Part shown: positions 1 through 27,097 of the stretch, in pieces
How the letters are laid out: every line of letters begins with the position of its first letter
How positions within the stretch are numbered: position 1 is the first letter of the stretch
DNA from: a virus
Virus record (IMG/VR): IMGVR_UViG_3300043548_000410
Coordinates: 1-27,172 of that record
Strand: one strand, 5' to 3'
Length of the DNA: 27,172 nucleotides
Program-made: the position numbers and the translations under genes
The notes under the pieces: generated by a model
Databases searched by the model: none
What the model saw: only the letters and a program-made list of their open reading frames with translations
Told to the model about the DNA's origin: nothing

Positions 1-325
1 CGGCATTCGGCGCGATGTAAGCGTCACGATTCATCACCTCATGTGCAGTGAGCCAGCATTCAACCTGCATTAGATCGTCCTTTGACACAAGATTAATTTC
101 GGGCTCATCAATTGAGTAGATATCATAACTGAATGATTCTTTCGTTTTGTTGAACCAGTACATGAAAGCATAACCATTTTCGAAGTGGTAAAGATTCTGA
201 ACTGGATCGAGAGTCAAAACTCTGTGCTTTTCAAGGGCCATCATATTGTCATCAGATAGCAAGTCCTGAAGACTAGATGGCAATGAGTTGACGTAGTCGG
301 ATGCTTGTTGAGCTGTGTATTTCAT
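1..325 (-). CDS. partial small conserved-type phage protein, C-terminus beyond window
   Basis: This is an open frame of 108 codons on the - strand. It begins MKYTAQQASDYVNSL and runs off the left edge without a stop. I do not recognise a family. The visible part is soluble and mixed-charge, with no membrane segment or signal peptide. The ATG at 325 is chosen because a promoter-like pair (TTGCGC, 17-nt spacer, TAGGTT) ends exactly 6 nt before it. That is the same spacing seen before several other genes of this array, and there is no Shine-Dalgarno sequence. It is the last visible cassette of the leftward array and lies downstream of the terminator-like block at 380-467. The promoter fit and an uninterrupted frame to the edge support it as a real gene. 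Confidence 0.75.
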   Translation of the reverse strand, partial: MKYTAQQASDYVNSLPSSLQDLLSDDNMMALEKHRVLTLDPVQNLYHFENGYAFMYWFNKTKESFSYDIYSIDEPEINLVSKDDLMQVECWLTAHEVMNRDAYIAPNA

Positions 326-331
326 GCGATT

Positions 332-360
332 AACCTAGTCCAAGCTGAGATATGGCGCAA
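332..360 (-). promoter_or_regulatory. leaderless-type promoter for the partial gene ending at 325
   Basis: Read on the - strand: TTGCGC (360-355), 17-nt spacer, TAGGTT (337-332), then six bases (AATCGC) and the ATG at 325. Initiation 6-8 nt after the -10 box would place +1 on or beside the ATG, so the mRNA would have no 5' leader. Transcription start is inferred, not measured. Confidence 0.55.
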
Positions 361-379
361 ATAAAAAATGCAAAAAAAT

Positions 380-467
380 TTACATCAAAGATGTAATAGT
401 TGTTGACACCCAAGCCAGGGGTAGCCCTGGAGCCCCCTCTGCGCAACAGAGAAACGCAGAGGGGGCT
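380..467 (-). terminator. repeat block A: three hairpins and U-run between cassettes
   Basis: On the - strand, after the 506-847 gene, the order is as follows. Hairpin 1 at 467-431 has a 13-bp perfect stem (AGCCCCCTCTGCG with its complement). Hairpin 2 at 430-415 is CCAGGG-CTAC-CCCTGG. The linker is TGTCAACAACTA. Hairpin 3 at 396-380 is TTACATC-TTT-GATGTAA, followed by a run of seven T. The last hairpin plus U-run resembles a weak intrinsic terminator. The order matches blocks B and C, although hairpin 1 is unrelated in sequence. Confidence 0.7.
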
Positions 468-505
468 TGCGCTATGCGCAACAGGGGAAACAAAAAAACC
501 CTGCC

Positions 506-847
506 CTACCGAAAGGTTCTTGTCAAGTGGTTTGTCACGCCATTTTTGAACAGTTCATAGTCAACGCATTCCAAAGCGTCGAGCTTGTAGCCGCCGACAT
601 TCCACTCAAACGCAACGTCTGGATTCTGCGGCACACGCTTCCATGCGTAAATGGTTGCCACCGTTCCGTTTGGAAACTTGAGACACCATTCGATGTTAAC
701 CTTGTCGCTTGGATCGACAGGATTATTGTACTTGCATGGCGCACCGAACACTGCAACCAATTGGTTGTATGTTGTTGAGATATAACCCTTGAGGCTGGTT
801 CCGTTGATGAGTGGAGTTCTGCGAACTGTCGATGTTGTAGTTGTCAT
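506..847 (-). CDS. conserved hypothetical phage protein (RTPLINGTSLKGYI type)
   Basis: A 113-residue protein beginning MTTTTSTVRRTPLINGTSL. The pattern of a Thr-rich start, RTPLINGTSLKGYI, then VFGAP and, further on, EWCLKFPNGTVATIYAWK is one I recall from small unannotated proteins in many environmental phages. The function is unknown. There is no catalytic motif, membrane segment or signal peptide. The ATG at 847 is preceded by TATCTT seven bases upstream and TTGCGT 16 bases before that, and no Shine-Dalgarno is present. The preceding gene stops 37 nt upstream, so this gene can be read from its own promoter or by read-through. Block A follows its stop. The family recall comes from memory, not from a search. 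Confidence 0.85.
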   Translation of the reverse strand: MTTTTSTVRRTPLINGTSLKGYISTTYNQLVAVFGAPCKYNNPVDPSDKVNIEWCLKFPNGTVATIYAWKRVPQNPDVAFEWNVGGYKLDALECVDYELFKNGVTNHLTRTFR

Positions 848-854
848 ATGTGGA

Positions 855-882
855 AAGATAGCAAAGAAAAGAGTGAACGCAA
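855..882 (-). promoter_or_regulatory. leaderless-type promoter for the 847 start
   Basis: On the - strand: TTGCGT (882-877), 16-nt spacer, TATCTT (860-855), seven bases, ATG at 847. The -35 box sits immediately after the stop codon of the upstream gene. Confidence 0.5.
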
Positions 883-884
883 GA

Positions 885-1106
885 CTAAAGAATAGCTTGA
901 GAGGGTTCTATCCTCTCACACACAAGGTCAAGAATTTTTCTCATGTAAGTGACAGATGTTTCGTGAACCGCATAACCTTCATGCTCTGCGATGTAGTTCA
1001 GAAGGAACTGAATTGATTCTGCTATAGACATGTCTTGTGCTTCAAGGATAGCTAGAACCGCAATCCTCACTGCGGTTCCTTGAGGTATATATTTTGAATC
1101 GGTCAT
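885..1106 (-). CDS. small hypothetical protein, 73 aa
   Basis: Translation starts MTDSKYIPQGTAVRIAVLAI and ends RIEPSQAIL. It looks like a compact, mostly helical soluble protein (AVRIAVLAILEAQDMSIAES, then a second amphipathic stretch FLLNYIAEHEG). The function is unknown. The frame stays open to 1382, but the start at 1106 is preferred: TACATT lies 6 nt upstream and TTGCGC 16 nt before that, as in the neighbouring cassettes. The longer version would run through block B. It is the first gene of a two-gene cassette with the gene at 506-847. Confidence 0.75.
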   Translation of the reverse strand: MTDSKYIPQGTAVRIAVLAILEAQDMSIAESIQFLLNYIAEHEGYAVHETSVTYMRKILDLVCERIEPSQAIL

Positions 1107-1112
1107 GCGAAA

Positions 1113-1140
1113 AATGTAGCACAGCAAAGAGTGAGCGCAA
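1113..1140 (-). promoter_or_regulatory. leaderless-type promoter for the 1106 start
   Basis: On the - strand: TTGCGC (1140-1135), 16-nt spacer, TACATT (1118-1113), six bases (TTTCGC), ATG at 1106. It follows block B after about 20 nt. Confidence 0.55.
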
Positions 1141-1159
1141 CATTTATTTGCAAAATATT

Positions 1160-1228
1160 TTACGTCGAAGACGTAATAGTTGTTGACAGGAGCCCAGGGG
1201 TAGCCCTGGCCCCAACCCTTTCGGGTTG
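1160..1228 (-). terminator. repeat block B: three hairpins between cassettes
   Basis: On the - strand: hairpin 1 CAACCC-GAAA-GGGTTG (1228-1213, GNRA-type loop), hairpin 2 CCAGGG-CTAC-CCCTGG (1209-1194), linker TGTCAACAACTA, hairpin 3 TTACGTC-TTC-GACGTAA (1176-1160), then AATATTTTGC. Hairpin 3 differs from those of blocks A and C at the base-paired positions but remains perfectly complementary. It lies 12 nt downstream of the 1240-1464 gene. Confidence 0.72.
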
Positions 1229-1239
1229 AGGCGTTTAGG

Positions 1240-1464
1240 CTACTCGATTTCCTGCTCCTCTTCTTCCTCTGGGCCACCGAATATCTCATCCCACTCTTCA
1301 GCGGTGATGCCCGATTTGATGAACTCGCGTTCATCGGGCGTGAGGTTGGGGAACGCATCCTGCAGCAGTGCGCCTGCTGCATAGAGGTTCATTTGCTCTT
1401 GCGTGACGGGGAGGTCAAAGGTGTTGACTTCGCCGCTGATCCATGATGTGCGTGTTATTTTCAT
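1240..1464 (-). CDS. conserved hypothetical phage protein with acidic tail (TPDEREFIKSGITAEEWDEIFG)
   Basis: A 74-residue protein, MKITRTSWISGEVNTFDLP..., containing QDAFPNLTPDEREFIKSGI followed by TAEEWDEIFG and a very acidic tail (GPEEEEEQEIE). Small proteins ending in a FPxLxxDEREFIxSGITxEEWDxxF motif are, from memory, common in freshwater and marine phages, usually without known function. The ATG at 1464 is chosen over the 1515 start because it removes a non-homologous-looking N-terminus and leaves only 5 nt after the previous stop, as expected for a two-gene cassette. No Shine-Dalgarno is present, so translational coupling to the upstream gene is likely. Block B follows. Confidence 0.82.
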   Translation of the reverse strand: MKITRTSWISGEVNTFDLPVTQEQMNLYAAGALLQDAFPNLTPDEREFIKSGITAEEWDEIFGGPEEEEEQEIE

Positions 1465-1469
1465 ACTAT

Positions 1470-1655
1470 TTATTTTTGGTTGTTGACTTGACGGACAGAA
1501 GAAACTAGTGGCCACTCAGGTGAGTCGCCATTGATGAGCTTGATTTGATATTCGCGCTCTTCGATCATGCACTCGATTGCGGTTTGCAACTGACGCAGGG
1601 AATCGAGGTCGCTGAAGTTTTGCCTAATTAGATCAATGAGGGGTTGAATGTTCAT
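1470..1655 (-). CDS. small hypothetical protein, 61 aa
   Basis: MNIQPLIDLIRQNFSDLDSL... is a short, amphipathic, helix-rich protein with the stretch LRQLQTAIECMIEEREYQI. It could form a small coiled coil or dimer, but no family is recognised. The start at 1655 is six bases after GAGTAT (a poor -10) with TTGCTT 16 nt further upstream, so its promoter fits the array's geometry but is the weakest. It is the first gene of the cassette with 1240-1464; the stop and the next ATG are 5 nt apart. Confidence 0.72.
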   Translation of the reverse strand: MNIQPLIDLIRQNFSDLDSLRQLQTAIECMIEEREYQIKLINGDSPEWPLVSSVRQVNNQK

Positions 1656-1661
1656 GTAGGA

Positions 1662-1689
1662 ATACTCTCACAGTTTTGTTTTTAAGCAA
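1662..1689 (-). promoter_or_regulatory. weak leaderless-type promoter for the 1655 start
   Basis: On the - strand: TTGCTT (1689-1684), 16-nt spacer, GAGTAT (1667-1662), six bases, ATG at 1655. The spacing matches the other array promoters; the -10 sequence itself is poor. Confidence 0.35.
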
Positions 1690-1708
1690 TAAAAAATAGC
1701 AAAAAAAT

Positions 1709-1780
1709 TTACGCTGCAAGCGTAATAGTTGTTGACAGCCCAGGCCAGGGGTAGCCCTGGCCCCCAACCCTTTCGGGTTG
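1709..1780 (-). terminator. repeat block C: three hairpins and U-run between cassettes
   Basis: On the - strand: hairpin 1 CAACCC-GAAA-GGGTTG (1780-1765), hairpin 2 GGCCAGGG-CTAC-CCCTGGCC (1762-1743), linker TGTCAACAACTA, hairpin 3 TTACGCT-TGC-AGCGTAA (1725-1709), then ATTTTTTTGC. This is the most complete copy. It begins 16 nt after the stop of the 1797-2027 gene. Confidence 0.75.
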
Positions 1781-1796
1781 AGGGGGTTAGCTGCGC

Positions 1797-2027
1797 TTAC
1801 TTGCCAAATGCGGCGAGCGCATCATGCGCGTATCGCTCGCGTTCTTCTTCATCAGCCACCTGCTGATTCAGGATATGCGCTTCCTGAATCATTATGCTGC
1901 AGGAATTAGCAAGCGAAAACAACAGCATATGCTGTTCGCAAGTGAGGTTCAGGGGATCAAGCCCCTCAACCATCTTGCGGGTTTCGATAAGTAGTTGATT
2001 CTGTAGGGTTTTGAGTGCGTCTTGCAT
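1797..2027 (-). CDS. small hypothetical protein, paralogue of the 2415-2651 product
   Basis: A 76-residue helical protein (MQDALKTLQNQLLIETRKMV...) ending EEERERYAHDALAAFGK. The product of 2415-2651 ends EERERYAHDALAACGK and shares a weaker middle (EQHMLLFSLANS against EEHIALLHQIAS), so the two are paralogues. The function is unknown. At the DNA level the last coding bases are far more alike than the rest and contain a hairpin (GCGAGCG...CGCTCGC). The gene starts 6 nt after the stop of 2034-2246, without Shine-Dalgarno, so it is the second member of a cassette. Block C follows its stop. Confidence 0.78.
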   Translation of the reverse strand: MQDALKTLQNQLLIETRKMVEGLDPLNLTCEQHMLLFSLANSCSIMIQEAHILNQQVADEEERERYAHDALAAFGK

Positions 2028-2033
2028 AGGATG

Positions 2034-2246
2034 TTACTTGGTGGTTGTGGTTTCTAACTTGTTGATAAAGAACTGCTTGGATTCGGGAACGAGTAGCATG
2101 AGCGTCATGACCTGCACTTTCAGGTGGCCAACCATAGCGGCATGCGCCACACCGACTCCACAGTCATCAAACTTCTCGCGCATATTGCGCTCAACCTGCG
2201 CGAAGTAGGTTTCGGCCAACTCAATCGGACAATTTGTTTTTTCCAT
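2034..2246 (-). CDS. small hypothetical protein, paralogue of the 3712-3912 product
   Basis: A 70-residue protein beginning MEKTNCPIELAETYFAQV. It resembles the product of 3712-3912: LAETYFAQVERNMREKF against LAENFVACVKRNAENTY, then AMVGHLKVQVMTLML against CTIAHLQSTLQIL, with similar length and a Lys-rich C-terminus. The family is unknown to me. The start at 2246 (not 2339) is supported by TATTGT six bases upstream and TTGCGC 16 nt before that. It is followed after 6 nt by the 1797-2027 gene. Confidence 0.78.
   Translation of the reverse strand: MEKTNCPIELAETYFAQVERNMREKFDDCGVGVAHAAMVGHLKVQVMTLMLLVPESKQFFINKLETTTTK
2053..2053. other. no additional feature; positional note on cassette overlap
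   Basis: Position lies inside the 2034-2246 gene. I looked for a separate promoter for the gene starting at 2027 here and saw none, so it is probably read from the 2246 promoter. Confidence 0.3.
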
Positions 2247-2252
2247 GCCCAA

Positions 2253-2280
2253 ACAATAGCAGAAAAAGAAACACGCGCAA
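2253..2280 (-). promoter_or_regulatory. leaderless-type promoter for the 2246 start
   Basis: On the - strand: TTGCGC (2280-2275), 16-nt spacer, TATTGT (2258-2253), six bases (TTGGGC), ATG at 2246. It sits directly after the hairpin at 2285-2312. Confidence 0.6.
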
Positions 2281-2284
2281 CACT

Positions 2285-2312
2285 CTTTTTTCATGCCAAG
2301 CATGAAAAAAAG
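2285..2312. terminator. additional bidirectional-type hairpin near block D
   Basis: CTTTTTTCATGC-CAA-GCATGAAAAAAAG is a near-perfect 12-bp stem with a 3-nt loop, flanked by T-runs on either strand. It lies just downstream of block D on the - strand, where the third hairpin of the block has lost its palindrome. It may replace that hairpin as terminator. Confidence 0.6.
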
Positions 2313-2324
2313 TTCATAAAAATT

Positions 2325-2395
2325 TTCACCTAATAGCATAATAGTTCTTGACGCCCAGGCCAGGGGTAGCCCTGGCCCCCAACCCTTTCGGGTTG
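2325..2395 (-). terminator. repeat block D, third hairpin degenerate
   Basis: On the - strand: hairpin 1 CAACCC-GAAA-GGGTTG (2395-2380), hairpin 2 GGCCAGGG-CTAC-CCCTGGCC (2377-2358), linker CGTCAAGAACTA. The aligned 17-mer TTATGCTATTAGGTGAA (2341-2325) no longer forms a perfect stem; AATTTTT follows. It lies after the stop of the 2415-2651 gene. Confidence 0.65.
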
Positions 2396-2414
2396 AGGGG
2401 TTTACGTTGTGAGG

Positions 2415-2651
2415 CTACTTACCGCATGCGGCGAGCGCATCATGCGCGTAGCGCTCGCGCTCCTCAAACTGCTCAACGGAGGCGACATCCGCCTCCTGCA
2501 CGAAACGCGCCTCCTGCGCGTTCGCGCATGCGAATGACGCAATTTGATGCAGGAGCGCGATATGCTCCTCCGTCAGGGAGGAGCAATTGAGGTCGCGCAC
2601 GCAGGCGCGAACGTGGATTAGGGTGGCGGTGAGGACGGATGAATTAACCAT
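2415..2651 (-). CDS. small hypothetical protein, paralogue of the 1797-2027 product
   Basis: A 78-residue protein (MVNSSVLTATLIHVRACVRD...) ending EERERYAHDALAACGK, homologous to the product of 1797-2027, most clearly at the C-terminus. It contains three Cys and Ala-rich helices, no membrane segment and no known motif. The start at 2651 lies six bases after TATTGT, like its neighbours, but the -35 region (TTCCAA) is weak. It is a single-gene cassette, lying between block E and block D on the transcript. Confidence 0.75.
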   Translation of the reverse strand: MVNSSVLTATLIHVRACVRDLNCSSLTEEHIALLHQIASFACANAQEARFVQEADVASVEQFEERERYAHDALAACGK

Positions 2652-2657
2652 GCGCGT

Positions 2658-2686
2658 ACAATACAAAAAGAGTGTTGCGATTGGAA
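2658..2686 (-). promoter_or_regulatory. possible leaderless-type promoter for the 2651 start
   Basis: On the - strand: TATTGT (2663-2658) six bases before the ATG; the best -35 is TTCCAA at 2686-2681 with a 17-nt spacer. The -10 hexamer is the same as in the 2246 promoter. Confidence 0.4.
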
Positions 2687-2705
2687 GGATTATTTTGCAA
2701 AAAAT

Positions 2706-2757
2706 TTCTCACCTTATGCTCAATAGTGCTTGACAGGGTGGCCAGGGCTCCCCCTGG
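2706..2757 (-). terminator. repeat block E, divergent copy
   Basis: On the - strand: hairpin 2 variant GCCAGGG-GGAG-CCCTGGC (2757-2740), linker TGTCAAGCACTA, a 17-mer (2722-2706) without a perfect stem, then AATTTTTTGC. There is no GAAA hairpin 1; a different structured region lies upstream at 2758-2932. Confidence 0.55.
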
Positions 2758-2932
2758 CAATTTTTGCCTAGTGAGTTTTTGCCGCCTTAGAGACTAGGCA
2801 CTTCTTGCCTAGCGCCAGGGATCATGCACTTTCTGCATCATGCACTGGCCACATGTACATGCACCGCATGCATGCGATGCACATGCCGCATGGCCATGCA
2901 TGGGCCGCATCCCATGCATGGCGTGCATGCAC
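2758..2932 (-). ncRNA. palindrome-dense noncoding segment, possible structured 3' RNA
   Basis: No convincing gene lies between 2652 and 2932. The segment is dense in CATG/ATGCA palindromes (CATGTACATG, GCATGCATGC, GTGCATGCAC). It has a perfect 12-bp stem GCCATGCATGGG / CCCATGCATGGC with a 6-nt loop (2893-2922), and a TGCCTAG/CTAGGCA set at about 2765-2803. Strand is assigned only because it follows the 35-codon gene on the leftward transcript. It may be a structured 3' region, a replication or packaging element, or a remnant of expanded repeats. Confidence 0.4.
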
Positions 2933-3040
2933 CTACTTCTTGCTTGTGAAGTAATCTACACCTTCCGCAACTAGCGCGACGATGGTGATGAATGTCATGG
3001 GGAATAGGACTAATGCAGATGCTGCAAGGATGTCTTTCAT
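2933..3040 (-). CDS. 35-aa single-membrane-span miniprotein
   Basis: The open frame encodes MKDILAASALVLFPMTFITI followed by VALVAEGVDYFTSKK and a TAG stop. One hydrophobic helix (about residues 4-25) is flanked by a short N-terminus with one Lys and a C-terminal tail ending in Lys-Lys, typical of a small inner-membrane protein. Holin-like, superinfection-exclusion or regulatory roles are possible, but nothing distinguishes them. It lies 54 nt downstream of 3095-3346, after a GAAA-capped hairpin. There is no Shine-Dalgarno and the -10 is unclear. Coding is supported by the coherent membrane-protein composition and by filling the gap between neighbouring same-strand genes. Confidence 0.6.
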   Translation of the reverse strand: MKDILAASALVLFPMTFITIVALVAEGVDYFTSKK

Positions 3041-3061
3041 GGTGTGTTTTTGTGTAGGTTG

Positions 3062-3080
3062 AGGGGGGCTTTCGCCCCCC
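3062..3080 (-). terminator. GAAA-capped GC hairpin between 3095-3346 and the miniprotein
   Basis: On the - strand, GGGGGGC-GAAA-GCCCCCC forms a very stable 7-bp stem with a GNRA-type loop, the same design as hairpin 1 of blocks B-D. No U-run follows, so it may stabilise the upstream 3' end or attenuate rather than terminate by itself. Confidence 0.45.
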
Positions 3081-3094
3081 CTTGTGATTCTTGC

Positions 3095-3346
3095 TTAGGC
3101 GTTTGCGTATTCTCTAACTAGCTTGAGGCCATTCACTTCCAAGGTGCGGATTTTTGCCGCACTAGTGAAGCTTCGCGTGCCCTTGGCCGTTGAGAGGATA
3201 TATTGCGTACCAGCGCCACATGCCTTGGACTCAACTAAGACGCCTTCTAGCGTCTTGAATTGGCCGTTATCATTCACGCGATCATTCGATGATGCGTGAT
3301 AGGTGACTTTGATGTTCGATCCGTTTGCGATTGTCAGGTTTGCCAT
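3095..3346 (-). CDS. small hypothetical protein, 83 aa
   Basis: MANLTIANGSNIKVTYHASS... ends KLVREYANA. The pattern of short polar and hydrophobic alternation (IKVTYHASS, FKTLEGVLVES, YILSTAKGTRSF) suggests a small beta-rich fold. No family is recognised. The frame extends to 3382, but the start at 3346 is preferred: TATACT lies eight bases upstream, TTGTTT 16 nt before that, and A-tracts lie beyond. The longer form would contain the whole core promoter. There is no Shine-Dalgarno. Confidence 0.75.
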   Translation of the reverse strand: MANLTIANGSNIKVTYHASSNDRVNDNGQFKTLEGVLVESKACGAGTQYILSTAKGTRSFTSAAKIRTLEVNGLKLVREYANA

Positions 3347-3354
3347 ATGTGAGA

Positions 3355-3402
3355 AGTATAGGGAATTGAGATTGAGAAACAAGGTTTTTTTCGTGTTTTT
3401 TT
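3355..3402 (-). promoter_or_regulatory. strong leaderless-type promoter with A-tract UP element (3346 start)
   Basis: On the - strand: AAAAAAACACGAAAAAAACC, then TTGTTT (3382-3377), 16-nt spacer, TATACT (3360-3355), eight bases, ATG at 3346. The two spaced A-tracts resemble an UP element. It is nearly the same as the promoter of the 3607 start. Confidence 0.65.
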
Positions 3403-3607
3403 AAGCTTTTTTTACCGAATGATCAAAGTGCATACTGCACTCTTTTGCATATTCTTCGTTGGTGAGGATAAGCGCGAAGCTGATATCGCAACGCCCGCTT
3501 GCAAAGAGCTCTGCGCGAACGGCTTTCGCCTCTTCGCGAGTCTCGCAACGAATCGCCTCATGCCCGAAGTTTCCTGCCTTGTTTAAGCTAACGTATAATG
3601 TGAACAT
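3401..3607 (-). CDS. small hypothetical protein, 68 aa
   Basis: MFTLYVSLNKAGNFGHEAIR is followed by CETREEAKAVRAELFASGRC and a tail ending SVKKA. The order of a beta strand, EEAKAVRAEL helix and a second strand (ISFALIL) suggests a small alpha/beta fold. No family is recognised. The start at 3607 lies six bases after TATACT with TTGTTT 16 nt upstream. Its stop overlaps the A-tract region of the next promoter. It is a single-gene cassette. Confidence 0.75.
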   Translation of the reverse strand: MFTLYVSLNKAGNFGHEAIRCETREEAKAVRAELFASGRCDISFALILTNEEYAKECSMHFDHSVKKA

Positions 3608-3613
3608 GTGAGA

Positions 3614-3661
3614 AGTATAGGTGAGCGAGAGAGAGAAACAAGTTTTTTTTTGTGTTTTATG
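3614..3661 (-). promoter_or_regulatory. strong leaderless-type promoter with A-tract UP element (3607 start)
   Basis: On the - strand: AAAACACAAAAAAAAAC, TTGTTT (3641-3636), 16-nt spacer rich in CTCT, TATACT (3619-3614), TCTCAC, ATG at 3607. The bases TATACTTCTCACAT are shared with the 3346 promoter. Confidence 0.65.
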
Positions 3662-3711
3662 CTACTTTTTTTTGCATGCGCAAAGCACTAAAAGAGAGAG
3701 AGTTAAGAAGC

Positions 3712-3912
3712 TCATTTGCCTTGGCCCTCCATCTTTTCGATCCTGAGTTTCAGAAACTCCTGAATTTGAGGGTGATGCGATGCTAGGATTTGCAGCGTGC
3801 TTTGAAGGTGCGCAATCGTGCATGTGTCAACATGCTCAGGTGCGTAAGTGTTTTCGGCGTTGCGCTTTACGCATGCGACGAAGTTTTCTGCTAGTGTTAG
3901 TGGGTCTTGCAT
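3712..3912 (-). CDS. small hypothetical protein, paralogue of the 2034-2246 product
   Basis: A 66-residue protein, MQDPLTLAENFVACVKRNAE..., with IAHLQSTLQILASHHPQI and a Lys-rich end. It resembles the 2034-2246 product over most of its length (LAExxxAxVxRN, then a HL-rich helix). The function is unknown. It starts 26 nt after the stop of 3939-4151, so it is probably the second gene of that cassette. No clear promoter with the array's spacing is seen before it, and there is no Shine-Dalgarno. The two LAE-type proteins sit in cassettes with different partners. Confidence 0.75.
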   Translation of the reverse strand: MQDPLTLAENFVACVKRNAENTYAPEHVDTCTIAHLQSTLQILASHHPQIQEFLKLRIEKMEGQGK

Positions 3913-3938
3913 AAGTAGGTGAATGAGAGAAGGTTATA

Positions 3939-4151
3939 CTAGTGAATGTAATCGTGAGCAGCATCTTGGCATTCATCCGAAGGGATGCTTTCCAATTCTT
4001 CGGGCGTCAGCGCAACGTACTTGTCGCCAACCTTTTTCGATGCATCGATGATGCACGCATCGCAAAAGTCAGGGTAATCCGCCATATCGATATCCATCAC
4101 GATATCAAAGCATTCGATCACTTCGCCGTTAACAGTCAATTTCATATCCAT
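3939..4151 (-). CDS. small acidic conserved-type hypothetical protein, 70 aa
   Basis: MDMKLTVNGEVIECFDIVMD begins a strongly acidic protein. Its central PDFCDACIIDASKKVG and the ending CQDAAHDYIH are, from memory, typical of a small phage or environmental family of unknown function. The three Cys do not form a CxxC zinc pair. Met1 at 4151 is preferred over Met3 because TAGTCT ends six bases upstream with TTGCGG 17 nt before that. It is the first gene of the leftward array at the boundary with the rightward genes, and shares the 4152-4408 intergenic region with them. Confidence 0.78.
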   Translation of the reverse strand: MDMKLTVNGEVIECFDIVMDIDMADYPDFCDACIIDASKKVGDKYVALTPEELESIPSDECQDAAHDYIH

Positions 4152-4157
4152 GTGAGA

Positions 4158-4186
4158 AGACTAAGCGAAGTGCTTTCGAACCGCAA
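4158..4186 (-). promoter_or_regulatory. leaderless-type promoter for the 4151 start
   Basis: On the - strand: TTGCGG (4186-4181), 17-nt spacer, TAGTCT (4163-4158), TCTCAC, ATG at 4151. The bases CTTCTCACATG are shared with the 3607 promoter. Confidence 0.5.
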
Positions 4187-4227
4187 CATTTATTTAATCT
4201 TTTTTTATCCCCCCCCATTATTTGAAA

Positions 4228-4262
4228 AATGCATGCGGTGCATTGGCGGCCAGGCCAGGGGG
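4228..4262 (-). terminator. truncated copy of the cassette 3' block
   Basis: On the - strand, CCCCTGGCCTG (4261-4251) matches the end of hairpin 2 in blocks C and D. It is followed after 6 nt by AATGCA-CCGCA-TGCATT (4244-4228), a 17-nt hairpin with a following TTTC run. The linker and the rest of hairpin 2 and hairpin 1 are missing. No - strand gene precedes it, so the array appears cut here. Confidence 0.45.
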
Positions 4263-4408
4263 GACTATTTTTTCAGTCCACCACCCAAAAATTTACCATT
4301 CCAAACTATACCCCTCCCCCTTTTTTTAAAATCATTATAATCTATCCCCATGTAACACATAACTAAACTCAAAAAAAATCGGACGCCTCTATTCGTGTAA
4401 CCTTTTTT

Positions 4409-5017
4409 ATGAACCACGACGTAAACTTCAAGTGCTTCGTCCGCAGATCACACTTTACTAAAAAAAATTTCGACAAAGAGGTTTTCGATCCCTGCATTGC
4501 ATTTGCCCTCCAATCAATCTCAGGAAAAATCCTAACATTTCACATCATGACTGACTACGGAATGCTTCGGTCTAGAGTACCAATATCAGAAATATTTCTA
4601 TCACCGCCAGGACATGACATCCCCTACCACTTCAAACAACTTTGGGACTGTTTTGGCGAAAAGGCTGAAGTCATAAGCTATGAATATCTCAAACAAAAGA
4701 GATGCCAAGTCATTTTAAAAGATAAAAAATTAATCTGGGCAACTTATATGTTTACTGTGGATTGGTATGACAATCCCTACAGCGAAGAACCTAGCGATTA
4801 CAAATGCGGTCACATCTTAGCGGCAGACGATGGCTATCTCCTCTGCCAACCAAACAATAGAATCTATTGGAAAGACTCGAATTTCATTTGCCGCGATTTT
4901 CCTATTGACAAAAAAGATATTAAAGTAGATCATGAGTTGTTATCTGTAGAAACTGCATCCGATAAATGGGTGTCAGAAGATACAGACTCATTTTACTATA
5001 ACATCAATGAAAACTGA
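4409..5017 (+). CDS. conserved hypothetical phage protein, 202 aa
   Basis: MNHDVNFKCFVRRSHFTKKN opens a protein with LTFHIMTDYGMLRSRVPIS, FKQLWDCFG, a LFT-like MFTVDWYDNPYSE and the ending half QPNNRIYWKDSNF. From memory, this order of an RSHF start, LWDCF, FTVDWY and QPNNRIxW marks a widespread phage and metagenome family of unknown function. No catalytic motif is visible. It overlaps the next gene by 11 bp, so the two are probably co-translated. The start at 4409 is the first ATG after the intergenic region; no Shine-Dalgarno is seen. Confidence 0.82.
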   Translation: MNHDVNFKCFVRRSHFTKKNFDKEVFDPCIAFALQSISGKILTFHIMTDYGMLRSRVPISEIFLSPPGHDIPYHFKQLWDCFGEKAEVISYEYLKQKRCQVILKDKKLIWATYMFTVDWYDNPYSEEPSDYKCGHILAADDGYLLCQPNNRIYWKDSNFICRDFPIDKKDIKVDHELLSVETASDKWVSEDTDSFYYNINEN

Positions 5018-5597
5018 ACAAATTAAAGTATTCACATCAACAAAAGAATTGCTCGAACACTATTCTGATATCACAACAGAAAAGAAAGATGAAGTTGGCC
5101 ACAAACATTTCATGATTCCAATTGAACATCAGCTCAAATGGTTCAATGACGGTCTAGGTTCAATCACTTATTTTGAAACAATTAAAAATGATAAAATAAG
5201 TAAAGCAGGCGAACATCTTTATCAAATGCACATGGAATATGTAAAAAATCTCAAAATGGGCGAAATCAAAGATAACGAATTAACAGAACCAGCATATATT
5301 AAAGCTGATGGATTCGATGATTGTCTTATTGGTTTGGGCTTTAAGTTTGGCAATAGAGGAACGCTCATCTATGACCAAGCAAAAGTAATTCAAAAACTAA
5401 TTGATGATAGCGAAGGCAAAATGACAGAAGACGAAGCTTTTGAATATTACGAATTCAACATCCTTGGAGCATATGTCGGAGAAAATATGCCAATCTTTGT
5501 TGAGTCATGCACGATGGATGAAATTCAAGAAATGATTGATCAAGATTGCCCCGAAAATGAATGCTGTGGTGGAGATTGTCACCAAACAGATTCATAA
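5007..5597 (+). CDS. conserved hypothetical phage protein with Cys-rich tail, 196 aa
   Basis: The C-terminal half contains DDCLIGLGFKFGNRGTLIYD and MTEDEAFEYYEFNILGAYVG followed by ENMPIFV. A DEAxEYFEFNxxGAxVGExTP motif is, from memory, shared by many phage hypothetical proteins. The N-terminal half (about residues 1-95) is charged and helical and is less familiar. Unusually, the protein ends with a cysteine cluster (CPENECCGGDCHQTDS), which could bind metal. It overlaps the previous gene by 11 bp and its last 19 bp overlap the converging deaminase gene. The function is unknown. Confidence 0.82.
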   Translation: MKTEQIKVFTSTKELLEHYSDITTEKKDEVGHKHFMIPIEHQLKWFNDGLGSITYFETIKNDKISKAGEHLYQMHMEYVKNLKMGEIKDNELTEPAYIKADGFDDCLIGLGFKFGNRGTLIYDQAKVIQKLIDDSEGKMTEDEAFEYYEFNILGAYVGENMPIFVESCTMDEIQEMIDQDCPENECCGGDCHQTDS

Positions 5598-5998
5598 GAG
5601 CCATCATCTAAGGTATAAAATATATTTTTAAACCCTAAACCCTGCAGGACTTTCATACAGTTCTGACAGGGTTTAGCCATTTTTACCTTATCTTCATTAT
5701 CAATTCTAACATTAATAAAGGTAAACTTAGAACAGTCAGTTTTGCCCATTTTAATGAGCGCATCTATCTCAGAATGGATTGAAGCAATATATTTCTCTGG
5801 ATTATCTTTGAATCCCTTATAAACCCCAAACATATTTCTTCTATGTAATTTTTTAAGATTATTTATTCCTATGCTTATTAATTTGTTTTTATTATAAACG
5901 AAAGTCATGTGAAAAGCTCTACCAGTTTGTCTGTCTTTCTTCAGGCATTTGGCTATTTCTATGCACTTTTTTATTTTGGTAGTTGCGCTCTTCGTCAT
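5579..5998 (-). CDS. zinc-dependent cytidine/deoxycytidylate deaminase-like protein
   Basis: A 139-residue protein with the deaminase metal site: H75-S-E77 in IASIHSEIDALIKM and P110-C-x-x-C114 in KPCQNCMKVLQGLGFKNIFY. The usual motif is H-A-E, so Ser replaces Ala. In this fold His and the two Cys bind zinc and Glu moves the proton. A phage enzyme of this type most often acts on dCMP or another nucleotide, but a base-modifying or nucleic-acid deaminase is not excluded; the substrate is unassigned. It is the only - strand gene among + strand genes here, has its own promoter, and converges on 5007-5597 with a 19-bp overlap. Confidence 0.8.
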   Translation of the reverse strand: MTKSATTKIKKCIEIAKCLKKDRQTGRAFHMTFVYNKNKLISIGINNLKKLHRRNMFGVYKGFKDNPEKYIASIHSEIDALIKMGKTDCSKFTFINVRIDNEDKVKMAKPCQNCMKVLQGLGFKNIFYTLDDGSYESVW

Positions 5999-6004
5999 AC
6001 TAAG

Positions 6005-6033
6005 AGTGTAAAAAGACTAAAGGAATAAGTCAA
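6005..6033 (-). promoter_or_regulatory. leaderless-type promoter for the deaminase-like gene
   Basis: On the - strand: TTGACT (6033-6028), 17-nt spacer, TACACT (6010-6005), six bases (CTTAGT), ATG at 5998. The -35 box reaches the first base of the divergent gene's ATG at 6033, so the two starts probably interfere. Confidence 0.6.
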
Positions 6034-7755: not shown

Positions 7756-8148
7756 ATGGCGTCAATATTCTGTCCAAGCTGTGGTAGTAAATCTGAATAT
7801 CAATTCGCTGCGCCGAATTTTTGTTCAAAATGTGGGCAACCATATGCTGGAAGAACATCTCATAAAAAAATGCCGACTTCAGCTCAAGTAAAATTGCGTA
7901 AAACTCAATCGGATGAGCAAGATTTTGTTGAGGATGATGAAGATGGAGAGACTTATGCAGAAGATGTTTTTTCTGATTCTACTAGAGTTCCAAGACTTAG
8001 GTCTTTGCAAGTAGACATAGATAACTCTTCAGACGTTAGAGTAGTAAAAATGTCCGATTTACTAAATGGAAATTTTGAACATCAATCACTAAAACTTGGG
8101 CAACGCCAAAGCATAGATGAGGCAATGAATGAGCGCGAAACAAACTAA
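7756..8148 (+). CDS. zinc-ribbon protein with acidic middle, 130 aa
   Basis: The N-terminus has a four-cysteine zinc ribbon: C6-P-S-C9 and C23-S-K-C26 (FCPSCGSKS, FCSKCGQPY). An acidic stretch (EDDEDGETYAEDVF, about 57-74) follows, then a polar C-terminal third. Such ribbons bind nucleic acid or protein; no enzyme domain is seen. Its last 20 bp overlap the sigma-like gene, so the two are translationally linked, and a joint role in late transcription is plausible but not shown. The first ATG after the palindromes is the only sensible start; the A-rich leader has no clear Shine-Dalgarno. Confidence 0.7.
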   Translation: MASIFCPSCGSKSEYQFAAPNFCSKCGQPYAGRTSHKKMPTSAQVKLRKTQSDEQDFVEDDEDGETYAEDVFSDSTRVPRLRSLQVDIDNSSDVRVVKMSDLLNGNFEHQSLKLGQRQSIDEAMNERETN

Positions 8149-8833
8149 AAAATTCTCCTTTGAAGAAAAAAGCGACATAATAATAAAAGCAATAAATAAA
8201 AAAAGAAACAAATGGCAGTTAACGGCCATTGCTTGGATGGATTTTGATGATGTTTCTCAGATAATTAAACTGCACATATATAAAAAATGGGACATGTGGG
8301 ATCAATCAAAACCCCTTGAACCTTGGATTGGAAGAATTATATCTAATCAACTTAAAAATTTAATTAGGAACAACTACACTAATTATATTAGACCTTGTTT
8401 GGGGTGTCCGCATAACGGTGGCGAAGATCAGTGCATTATCTCTCCAAATGGATTACAAGGTGGCTTCTGCGAACTATTTAAAAAATGGGAAAAGCAGAAA
8501 AAAAGCGGATACGATTTAAAAATGCCACTGGCTTTGGAGAATCACAAAAAAGAAATTGAAGAAACAATAGATAATTCATTCTTTTCATTTACTTCTGTAG
8601 ACATGCTGAATGATGAAATGAAGAAAGTGCTGACATTAAAGCAATATAATGCATACGTAATGCTTTTCTTTGAGAAGAAGGATGAGGAAGAGGTGGCTAG
8701 ATTCATGGGGTATAAAACTACCGAAAAGAATAGAATGATTGGATACAAACAAATCAAAAATCTTAAAAAACTCTTTAGAGAAAAGGCTTTAGAAATTTTA
8801 AAGAATAAAGATATTTGTTATGGAGCAGAATAA
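8129..8833 (+). CDS. sigma-70-family-like phage transcription factor
   Basis: A 234-residue protein with a sigma region 2-like block (about 34-82: AWMDFDDVSQIIKLHIYKKW, then PLEPWIGRIISNQLKNLIR) and a region 4-like helix-turn-helix near the C-terminus (about 168-228: LTLKQYNAYVMLFFE, EEEVARFMGYKTTEKNR). Between them is an insertion with C90, C93, H95, C102 and C114, which could hold zinc. Short two-domain sigma proteins direct late transcription in T4-type phages. The assignment rests on pattern, not on a search. It overlaps the zinc-ribbon gene by 20 bp and the next gene by 14 bp, inside the packaging operon. Confidence 0.65.
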   Translation: MSAKQTKKFSFEEKSDIIIKAINKKRNKWQLTAIAWMDFDDVSQIIKLHIYKKWDMWDQSKPLEPWIGRIISNQLKNLIRNNYTNYIRPCLGCPHNGGEDQCIISPNGLQGGFCELFKKWEKQKKSGYDLKMPLALENHKKEIEETIDNSFFSFTSVDMLNDEMKKVLTLKQYNAYVMLFFEKKDEEEVARFMGYKTTEKNRMIGYKQIKNLKKLFREKALEILKNKDICYGAE

Positions 8834-24625: not shown

Positions 24626-27097
24626 ATGTCATTTTTTAAAAAATTTAATAATTTTAATACGAACAAGATTTCTATTGTAAATAATAGATTTTTAAAATTG
24701 GGGCAAGATATTGATGGAGAGGCATCTGGTGATCTATTCGGTGTTTCAGTTTCAATGAACGCTGCTGGTGATAGGGTTGCGATTGGAGGCAATGCAAACG
24801 ATGTAGATGGAGCAAGAACGGATGCTGGTCATGTTCGCATATATGAACTGCGATCTGGTACTTGGACGCAGTTGGGAGTGGATATTGATGGAGAAGCGGC
24901 TACTGACTATTTGGGCTGGTCAGTCTCAATGAACGCTGCTGGTGATAGAGTTGCGATTGGTGCGTGGGGCAACGATGTAGGTGGAGCAAGAAATGGAGCT
25001 GGTCACGTTCGCGTATACAGTTGGAATGGAACAACTTGGACGCAGTTGGGAGTGGATATTGATGGGGAAGCTGCTGGTGATCAATCGGGCTATTCGGTTT
25101 CAATGAATGCTGCTGGTGATAGAGTTGCGATTGGAGCGCGTAATAATGATGTGGGTGGAGCAAAAACAGATGCTGGTCATGTTCGCGTATACGAACTGCA
25201 ATCTGGTACTTGGACGCAATTAGGTGTGGATATCGATGGAGAAGCTGCTGGTGATCAATCGGGCTATTCGGTTTCAATGAATGCTGCTGGTAATAGAGTT
25301 GCGATTGGAGCGAATGGAAATAGTGTAGGTGGACTAAGAGCGTTCGCTGGTCATGTTCGCATATATGAACTGCGATCTGGTACTTGGACGCAGTTGGGAG
25401 TGGATATTGATGGGGAAGCGGCTAGTGATAGTTCAGGCGTTTCAGTTTCAATGAATGCTGCTGGTGATAGAGTTGCGATTGGAGCGACTGGAAACGGTGG
25501 AAACGGTTCTAGCGCTGGTCATGTTCGCATATATGAACTGCGATCTGGTACTTGGACTCAGTTAGGAGTGGATATTGATGGGGAAGCGGCTAGTGATAGT
25601 TCAGGCGTTTCAGTCTCAATGAACGCTGCTGGTGATAGAGTTGCGATTGGAGCGACTGGAAACGATGGAAGAGGATCTAATTCTGGTCATGTTCGCATAT
25701 ACAGTTGGAATGGAGCAGCTTGGACTCAGTTAGGAGTGGATATTAATGGGGAAGCGGCTGGTGATCAATCGGGCAGATCAGTTTCAATGAACGCTGCTGG
25801 TGATAGAGTTGCGATTGGAGCGACTGGAAACAAGGCAGGTAACGCTATTGGCAATTGGGGTCATGTTCGCGTATATTATGATTATTTAATCGGCAATAGA
25901 ACATCAATATATCAATTAGGAGTGGATATTAATGGAAAAGCTGCTAATGATGAATCAGGCTATTCAGTCTCAATGAACGCCGCTGGTGATAGAGTTGCGA
26001 TTGGAGCGCATTTGAATGATGCAAATGGACTAAGAACAAATGCTGGTCATGTTCGCGTATATCAACTGCAGTCTGGTACTTGGACGCAGTTAGGAGTCGA
26101 TATTGATGGAGAAGCTGCTAATGATGAATCAGGCTATTCAGTCTCAATGAACGCCGCTGGTGATAGAGTTGCGATTGGAGCGCCTAATAATTTAAATTAT
26201 AAGGGTCATGTTCGCGTATACGAACTGCAATCTGGTACTTGGACGCAGTTGGGAATCGATATTGATGGAGAGGCGGTTAATGATCAATCGGGCTGGTCAG
26301 TCTCAATGAACGCCGCTGGTGATAGAGTTGCGATTGGAGCGCCTGGTAATGATGGAAATGGTTCTAGTGCTGGTCATGTTCGCGTATACGAGCTGCAATC
26401 TGGTACTTGGACGCAGTTAGGCGTAGATATCAATGGAGAGGCGGCTAATGATTATTTTGGCTCTTCAGTCTCAATGAATGCCGCTGGTGATAGAGTTGCG
26501 ATTGGAGCAACTAATAATGATGTAGGTAAAACAAAAACAGATGCTGGTCATGTTCGCGTATATCAACTGCAGTCTGGTACTTGGACGCAGTTAGGAGTCG
26601 ATATTGATGGAGAAGCTGCTGGTGATCAATCGGGCTGGTCAGTCTCAATGAACGCCGCTGGTGATAGAGTTGCGATTGGAGCGCCGTTTAACAATGGAAA
26701 TGGTTCTACTGCTGGTCATGTTCGCGTATACGAGCTGCAATCTGGTACTTGGACGCAGTTAGGAGTCGATATTGATGGAGAAGCGGCTACTGATCAATCG
26801 GGCCGTTCAGTTTCAATGAACGCTGTTGGTGACAGAGTTGTGATTGGAGCGCGATATAACGATGCAAACGGATCTTGGTACGAAAGAACGGATGCTGGTC
26901 ATGTTCGCGTATATGGTTGGAATGGAGCGAGTTGGACAATATTATGCGGAGATATTGATGGAAAAGTGGCTGGTGATCAATCGGGCTATTCGGTTTCAAT
27001 GAACGCTGTTGGTGATAGAGTTGCGATTGGAGCGCCGTTTAAAACTAACAATGTTTCTAGTATTGGTTATGTTCGTGTATTTCAAATTAGTTTATAA
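24626..27097 (+). CDS. FG-GAP-like beta-propeller protein, fourteen repeats, 823 aa
   Basis: After about 25 residues (MSFFKKFNNFNTNKISIVNN), the protein consists of fourteen repeats of 50-60 residues: QLGVDIDGEA, a variable DxxGx, SVSMNAAGDRVAIGA, a variable Asn/Gly/Asp-rich loop, AGHVRVYELQSGTW. This is an FG-GAP/integrin-like blade pattern; fourteen repeats suggest two seven-bladed propellers. No signal peptide is seen, as expected for a virion protein. Located directly after the giant fibre, it could be the fibre tip or an accessory adhesin. The DNA of the repeats is highly alike, with changes gathered in two loops. A role in host binding is inferred. Confidence 0.8.
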   Translation: MSFFKKFNNFNTNKISIVNNRFLKLGQDIDGEASGDLFGVSVSMNAAGDRVAIGGNANDVDGARTDAGHVRIYELRSGTWTQLGVDIDGEAATDYLGWSVSMNAAGDRVAIGAWGNDVGGARNGAGHVRVYSWNGTTWTQLGVDIDGEAAGDQSGYSVSMNAAGDRVAIGARNNDVGGAKTDAGHVRVYELQSGTWTQLGVDIDGEAAGDQSGYSVSMNAAGNRVAIGANGNSVGGLRAFAGHVRIYELRSGTWTQLGVDIDGEAASDSSGVSVSMNAAGDRVAIGATGNGGNGSSAGHVRIYELRSGTWTQLGVDIDGEAASDSSGVSVSMNAAGDRVAIGATGNDGRGSNSGHVRIYSWNGAAWTQLGVDINGEAAGDQSGRSVSMNAAGDRVAIGATGNKAGNAIGNWGHVRVYYDYLIGNRTSIYQLGVDINGKAANDESGYSVSMNAAGDRVAIGAHLNDANGLRTNAGHVRVYQLQSGTWTQLGVDIDGEAANDESGYSVSMNAAGDRVAIGAPNNLNYKGHVRVYELQSGTWTQLGIDIDGEAVNDQSGWSVSMNAAGDRVAIGAPGNDGNGSSAGHVRVYELQSGTWTQLGVDINGEAANDYFGSSVSMNAAGDRVAIGATNNDVGKTKTDAGHVRVYQLQSGTWTQLGVDIDGEAAGDQSGWSVSMNAAGDRVAIGAPFNNGNGSTAGHVRVYELQSGTWTQLGVDIDGEAATDQSGRSVSMNAVGDRVVIGARYNDANGSWYERTDAGHVRVYGWNGASWTILCGDIDGKVAGDQSGYSVSMNAVGDRVAIGAPFKTNNVSSIGYVRVFQISL
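24701..27094 (+). repeat. fourteen in-frame ~150-185-bp propeller repeats
   Basis: The segment encoding SVSMNAAGDRVAIG recurs fourteen times with few changes (repeat 4 has N for D; repeats 13-14 have V for A before GDR). Length differences lie in the loop between AIGA and GHVRVY. The Trp of SGTW or NGxxW closes most repeats; repeats 7 and 14 lack it. Confidence 0.9.

What the first reader, a model, noticed from the sequence alone, without database searches (positions are those of the whole stretch)
326..4186. Array of leaderless-type promoters with fixed -10-to-ATG spacing
Eight - strand starts (325, 847, 1106, 2246, 2651, 3346, 3607, 4151; 1655 more weakly) have a TANNNT-type -10 box ending 6-8 nt before the ATG. 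Most also have TTGCG[C/T/G] or TTGTTT 16-17 nt further upstream, and none has a Shine-Dalgarno. Since RNA polymerase normally starts 6-8 nt after the -10 box, +1 would fall on or near the ATG. Seen: the motifs and spacing. Established: sigma70 promoter geometry and leaderless initiation. Inferred: that the phage relies on leaderless translation for a whole set of accessory genes.
Basis: partly seen in the sequence, partly recalled or inferred. Interest (0 to 1): 0.78.

Follow-up and report, generated by a model that had tools for sequence, protein, structure and literature searches.

The report
Phage genes with built-in leaderless promoters
An uncultivated phage family places its promoters so close to its genes that the messenger RNA should begin on, or within about three letters of, the start codon, so the phage appears to do without the usual ribosome-binding leader for whole blocks of genes.

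Summary
All eight named starts have TANNNT ending 6-8 nt before the ATG, seven have a TTGNNN box 16-17 nt further up, and none has a Shine-Dalgarno. In the window plus six related contigs, promoter-like sites peak 6 nt before ATGs (62, against about 8 at other distances). There the base before ATG is C or T in 56 of 61 cases, against 39% at ATGs in general, fitting a transcription start on the A of ATG. Homologous genes keep the geometry where surrounding letters, or even the promoter, differ. A sister phage uses a fixed 9 nt with C/T-G at the predicted start in 14 of 14, predicting a 3-nt leader. Shine-Dalgarno motifs are not enriched in three relatives tested. Most units follow a conserved hairpin-box-terminator element. 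Leaderless mRNAs, including in phages, are known; this array and module extend that. No RNA 5' end has been measured, and the host (perhaps Verrucomicrobiota) is only suggested.

The parts
355..360 (-). -35-like TTGCGC of the unit starting at 325
332..337 (-). -10-like TAGGTT, 6 nt before ATG at 325
1..325 (-). ORF starting at 325 (runs off the window), 108 aa seen; 38% identical homolog in G015
877..882 (-). -35-like TTGCGT
855..860 (-). -10-like TATCTT, 7 nt before ATG at 847
506..847 (-). leaderless-type gene, 113 aa, unknown function; 79-81% identical in G001/G016
1135..1140 (-). -35-like TTGCGC
1113..1118 (-). -10-like TACATT, 6 nt before ATG at 1106
885..1106 (-). leaderless-type gene, 73 aa; 66% identical in G002 with the same geometry
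1470..1655 (-). first gene of a two-gene unit, 61 aa; weak -10 (GAGTAT at N6; GATGAT in relatives)
1240..1464 (-). second gene of that unit, 74 aa, no SD; homolog in G002 stands behind its own promoter of this kind
2275..2280 (-). -35-like TTGCGC
2253..2258 (-). -10-like TATTGT, 6 nt before ATG at 2246
2034..2246 (-). leaderless-type gene, 70 aa
1797..2027 (-). second gene of that unit, 76 aa, no SD, starts 6 nt after the previous stop
2658..2663 (-). -10-like TATTGT, 6 nt before ATG at 2651 (no TTG box)
2415..2651 (-). leaderless-type gene, 78 aa; 83-91% identical in G001/G016, 47% in G002, -10 kept at N6
3377..3382 (-). -35-like TTGTTT
3355..3360 (-). -10-like TATACT, 8 nt before ATG at 3346 (TCTCAC-AT-ATG)
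3095..3346 (-). leaderless-type gene, 83 aa, 75-99% identical in G001, G002, G003, G016
2933..3040 (-). second ORF of that unit, 35 aa, no SD, behind a GC-rich hairpin
3636..3641 (-). -35-like TTGTTT
3614..3619 (-). -10-like TATACT, 6 nt before ATG at 3607
3401..3607 (-). leaderless-type gene, 68 aa; in G001 the homolog has a different promoter sequence with the same geometry
4181..4186 (-). -35-like TTGCGG
4158..4163 (-). -10-like TAGTCT, 6 nt before ATG at 4151
3939..4151 (-). leaderless-type gene, 70 aa
3712..3912 (-). second gene of that unit, 66 aa, no SD
6005..6010 (-). -10-like TACACT, 6 nt before ATG at 5998
5579..5998 (-). dCMP/cytidine deaminase-like gene, 139 aa; homologs in five relatives align from residue 1 with a TTGACT promoter close to the start
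380..432 (-). intergenic element: CCAGGG/CCCTGG hairpin, GTCAACAACTATTAC box, T-tailed hairpin
1160..1211 (-). intergenic element, same layout
1709..1762 (-). intergenic element, same layout
2312..2377 (-). intergenic element, second class (box further from the promoter); lower limit approximate
2700..2757 (-). intergenic element, most divergent copy; lower limit approximate

Best explanation
These are sigma-70-type promoters (TTGNNN, 16-17 nt, TANNNT, about half with a TG before the -10) set at a fixed distance so that RNA polymerase starts on the A of the ATG or within about 3 nt of it. The resulting mRNAs have no leader and no Shine-Dalgarno and would be translated by leaderless initiation (ribosome binding to a 5'-terminal AUG). 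In the left 4.2 kb each transcription unit is one or two small genes, and most units follow an intergenic element that looks like a terminator for the previous unit, so the region reads as a string of self-contained terminator - promoter - ATG units. Shown: motifs, spacing, enrichment, conservation, -1 pyrimidine, no SD enrichment in three relatives. Inferred: the actual 5' ends, the translation mode, which polymerase and sigma are used, and that the elements terminate transcription.
For: Full motif at 8 of 14 curated starts, shuffles 0.057. Unsupervised ORF sets in G001, G015 and G016 minus strands: 7, 7 and 9 full matches, shuffle means 0.23, 0.65 and 0.49. Distance distribution over seven contigs: 62 at 6 nt, 23 at 7, 18 at 8, about 8 at other distances. 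Base before ATG is C/T in 56 of 61 at 6 nt; 39% C/T at all ATGs. Most homologs align from residue 1 at these ATGs and their promoters keep the geometry, including 3607 in G001 and 1464 in G002 where the promoter sequence is different or new. Among homolog pairs of equal lengths, -35 and -10 are more alike (86%, 90%) than spacer (70%) or discriminator (69%). SD motifs not enriched over shuffles in G001, G015, G016. Sister phage G007 (terminase 69% identical) has 14 promoters at exactly 9 nt with C/T-G at nt 6-7 in 14 of 14.
Against: No transcript data. Exact distance is not always kept: 46 of 78 homolog pairs share it, and 16 of 34 pairs under 75% identity, most of the rest differing by 1-3 nt (some pairs are poor matches). 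The host, and so its polymerase and ribosome, is not identified. A generic sigma-70 scan that demands closeness to TTGACA/TATAAT found no more sites than shuffles and only one of those described here (5998). Some left-region promoters may be copies of one ancestor and are not all independent.
Confidence: 0.85

Rival explanations
1. The array is a duplication artefact: one promoter was copied with the intergenic repeat, so the fixed spacing reflects common descent and not selection.
For: Neighbouring units share repeats that extend into the promoter (D4, D7, D9); two small genes share sequence (D5).
Against: The same geometry occurs on the plus strand in relatives at unrelated genes (a RuvB-like gene and others) with unrelated spacer sequences; homologs keep -35/-10 better than the letters between; a homolog in G001 has a different promoter with the same geometry; a sister phage has a different fixed distance.
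Confidence: 0.07
2. The ATGs are mis-assigned; translation starts at internal codons and the mRNAs have short leaders.
For: Several ORFs are tiny and of unknown function, so their starts are hard to verify singly.
Against: Most homologs align from residue 1 at the same ATG with the promoter kept just upstream; ATGs at 6 nt have a specific -1 pyrimidine.
Confidence: 0.04
3. Transcription really starts far upstream and TANNNT is a translation or composition signal of SD-less genes.
For: The relatives tested show no SD enrichment and are AT-rich before genes.
Against: A TTGNNN box at 16-17 nt accompanies TANNNT, which a translation signal would not need; terminator-like hairpins lie between units.
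Confidence: 0.04

Closest known systems
Leaderless bacterial genes with TANNNT about 12 bp before the start codon (Zheng et al. 2011, PMC3160421); -10 regions adjacent to ORFs in Deinococcus-Thermus (PMC12340547)
   Same: -10 box at the same distance from the start, no SD; the Deinococcus-Thermus paper reports a spacing requirement relative to the ORF.
   Different: Here in an uncultivated phage family, with a -35 and often a TG before the -10, as an array of small genes separated by a conserved intergenic element.
Thermus phage phiYS40 (as described in PMC3594737, citing Sevostyanova et al. 2007, which was not held)
   Same: A phage reported to make most of its middle/late mRNAs without leaders.
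   Different: No relationship found or tested; there the leaderless class is temporal (middle/late), while timing is unknown here; a sister phage here predicts 3-nt leaders.
Leaderless transcripts of Akkermansia muciniphila (Cappable-seq, PMC4782308)
   Same: Measured in Verrucomicrobiota, the phylum suggested as host: about 10% of TSS at the start of annotated genes.
   Different: Cellular genes; the phage host is not shown to be of this phylum.
Start-associated sequences (SAS/ESAS) of cluster K mycobacteriophages (PMC3203893)
   Same: Repeated phage intergenic elements, nearly all in one orientation, tied to gene starts, some with inverted repeats.
   Different: SAS is placed at the start codon with a proposed role in translation initiation; here the box lies about 80-105 nt up, between hairpins, and the start has no SD.

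Membership tests
leaderless-type genes | -10 box ending about 6-8 nt before the start codon | tested here: met
leaderless-type genes | no Shine-Dalgarno | tested here: met
   window starts; G001, G015, G016; other relatives not tested
leaderless-type genes | mapped mRNA 5' end at or within a few nt of the start codon | not testable with these tools
   no RNA data; -1 pyrimidine is indirect
sigma-70-type promoter | two hexamers 16-18 nt apart | tested here: met
   spacer 16 or 17 in 59 of 61 at 6 nt, within a search range of 15-18
sigma-70-type promoter | closeness to TTGACA/TATAAT above chance in a generic scan | tested here: not met
   7 found against 10.6 in shuffles, one of them a site described here (5998)
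intrinsic terminator (intergenic element) | stem-loop followed by a T run, kept by compensatory change | tested here: met
   104 of 105 pairs kept in 15 hand-picked copies, shuffled arms mean 92.5, maximum 101; T tails; copies without a clear hairpin were left out
intrinsic terminator (intergenic element) | stops transcription | not testable with these tools
   no RNA data
relative of phage phiYS40 | sequence relationship to phiYS40 | not tested
   compared by strategy only

The most novel reading that the evidence does not exclude
A phage lineage has standardised its non-structural genes into interchangeable units, each made of a conserved terminator-plus-box element and a promoter that starts transcription on the AUG, with the box GTCAA(G/C)(A/C)ACTATTACG acting as a regulatory site that controls the whole set together; different sub-lineages fix different leader lengths (0 or 3 nt).
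Probability: 0.3. Interest if true: 0.72.

Novelty: new variant of a known kind. Interest (0 to 1): 0.55.

Why it matters
Leaderless translation is usually studied gene by gene or in a few cultivated bacteria. A phage family that fixes the promoter-to-start distance across many genes, with a sister lineage fixed at a different distance, gives a natural comparison of 0-nt and 3-nt leaders and would make it testable how a virus expresses gene sets without ribosome-binding leaders. The compact units could also explain how small accessory genes are exchanged while staying expressed.

Tried and rejected
Known phages: no DNA match to the window; terminase matches only at 21-27% identity in the rows listed. 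Rfam: nothing in 1-4600. Pfam/PHROGs: small left-region proteins unknown, one weak hit. Host: one genome scan with a DUF1501 protein from relative G015 gave a best match of 61% to a Chthoniobacteraceae (Verrucomicrobiota) MAG, next 45%; but the window's terminase was not found in 213 genomes of that order, only weak partial matches appeared in 11 of 388 genomes of the phylum, and the best-matching MAG shows no 6-nt peak in the 398 kb of it that I read. Phylum-wide pattern counts: 2070 at 6 nt against 2042 at 11 nt over 115 genomes, so by raw counts the phylum as a whole is not enriched at 6 nt (the reversed-pattern control gives 889 and 1304), though single genomes, picked after seeing the table, are (G058 31 against 2; G035 67 against 27; G019 60 against 31). 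I therefore do not claim the host. A recombination-site (integron-like) reading of the intergenic element was considered and not tested. A first covariation alignment of the hairpin misplaced the variable stems, so the pairs were counted on arms aligned by hand.
Full report
What the window is. The 27,172-base window is a whole virus record, probably a fragment. The right part (6-27 kb, plus strand) holds a PhoH-like gene, a gene with a sigma-70 region 2 match, an ERCC4-type nuclease, a T4-type terminase and large structural-looking genes. The left 4 kb has higher G+C (45-52% per kb, against 29-40% in most of the rest) and minus-strand small ORFs. Relatives used here are contigs G001 (79 kb), G002 (37 kb), G003 (41 kb), G004 (20.6 kb), G015 (71 kb) and G016 (86 kb). 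G015 was found through the intergenic repeat and shows no terminase match.

Checking the observation. All eight starts were re-read. Eight of 14 curated minus-strand starts have TTGNNN-N16/17-TANNNT-N6-8-ATG, six at exactly 6 nt, one at 7, one at 8, none at any other distance from 0 to 30. Dinucleotide shuffles give a mean of 0.057. The 2651 start has only the -10. The 1655 start is weak. No SD-like motif occurs in the 15 nt scanned before any of the 14.

Is it chance or copying? An unsupervised ORF set gives the same answer in the window and in relatives; G003 and G004 have few cases. Summed over seven contigs, TTGNNN-N15-18-TANNNT sites have 62 ATGs at 6 nt, 23 at 7, 18 at 8, 20 at 9, and about 8 at other distances. 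The cases include plus-strand genes with unrelated letters. Homolog pairs keep -35 and -10 (86%, 90% identical) better than spacer and discriminator (70%, 69%), counted on pairs with equal lengths; since the pattern itself fixes some letters of the two boxes, part of that difference is built in. 46 of 78 pairs share the exact distance, 16 of 34 among pairs under 75% identity. The distance is thus tight but not invariant. The 3607 homolog in G001 sits behind a different promoter with the same geometry, and the 1464 gene, second in its unit here, has its own such promoter in G002.

Where transcription would start. At 6 nt the A of ATG is the seventh nt after the -10. The preceding base is C or T in 56 of 61 cases; at all ATGs in these contigs C plus T is 39%. 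Sister phage G007 (terminase 69% identical) has, between 64 and 76 kb on its minus strand, 14 promoters at exactly 9 nt, most reading TTCCCCGYC-ATG or close to it; nt 6 is C/T and nt 7 is G in 14 of 14. That places +1 at the same distance from the -10 but three nt before ATG. These 14 are neighbours and may share descent. G008 (65% terminase; 140 of 194 kb read) peaks at 6 nt on its minus strand, with C/T before ATG in 12 of 13; G006 has five such sites, all with C before ATG, mostly in one short stretch. I read this as selection on where the RNA begins relative to the AUG. That is inference; no RNA was examined.

Translation. SD motifs are not enriched over shuffles in G001, G015 or G016 (17 against 13.0, 5 against 8.0, 11 against 12.1). 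Other relatives were not tested for this. Second genes of units lack both promoter and SD; two start 5-6 nt after the previous stop, which would fit reinitiation, untested.

The intergenic element. Between units lies a CCAGGG/CCCTGG hairpin, a box GTCAA(G/C)(A/C)ACTATTACG, and a short hairpin with a T tail. Matches to the box with at most one mismatch number 48 in the seven contigs against 1.5 in mononucleotide shuffles; 44 have the CCAGG hairpin upstream; 33 have a promoter of the described kind downstream, most often 81-83 nt to the ATG, a second class around 105-106. Exact multi-copy occurrence in the virus collection is confined to contigs of this family. In 15 hand-picked clear copies the hairpin keeps 104 of 105 pairs, with changes on both sides at three pairs; one more copy with arms identical to another was left out as redundant, and copies without a clear hairpin were not counted. 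Folding three of the window's regions gave z-scores of -3.1 to -4.9, but the minimum-energy structure forms this particular hairpin in only one of the three. Most likely reading: terminator of the previous unit. The role of the box is unknown.

Host. A DUF1501 gene in G015 is 61% identical to one in a Chthoniobacteraceae MAG. Akkermansia, same phylum, has about 10% leaderless TSS (PMC4782308). Against: terminase searches in the phylum and order found no close match, the best-matching MAG lacks the 6-nt peak, and by raw counts the phylum as a whole is not enriched. Host left open.

Novelty. Leaderless mRNAs are established in bacteria (PMC3160421, PMC12340547) and reported for most middle/late mRNAs of phage phiYS40 (PMC3594737). 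My literature searches, limited to open papers, found no description of this phage family or element. I rate it a new variant of a known kind.

Noticed in passing
G007 minus strand 64-76 kb (L245): Array of small genes with promoters at exactly 9 nt (TTCCCCGYC-ATG), predicting 3-nt leaders.
   Followed up: partly
window 380-432, 1160-1211, 1709-1762, 2312-2377, 2700-2757: Conserved intergenic element with a box of unknown role, in one orientation relative to the downstream gene in the copies tied to promoters.
   Followed up: partly
G016:C1:74443-77637: Terminase reading frame is 1064 aa against 619 in the window, with the match split around residues 84-137: an in-frame insertion of several hundred aa, possibly an intein.
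   Followed up: no
window 8129-8833: Phage gene with a sigma-70 region 2 match (Pfam, just above cut-off); could direct other promoters of this phage.
   Followed up: no
window 4409-5017: Matches PHROG 3704, labelled ferredoxin (E 7.6e-38); the label was not checked.
   Followed up: no
window 2839-2932: Stretch rich in CATGCATG-like words, partly palindromic, between two units.
   Followed up: no
window 24626-27097: 823-aa protein made of repeats (AGHVRVY...SVSMNAAGDRVAIGA), probably virion or adhesion related.
   Followed up: no
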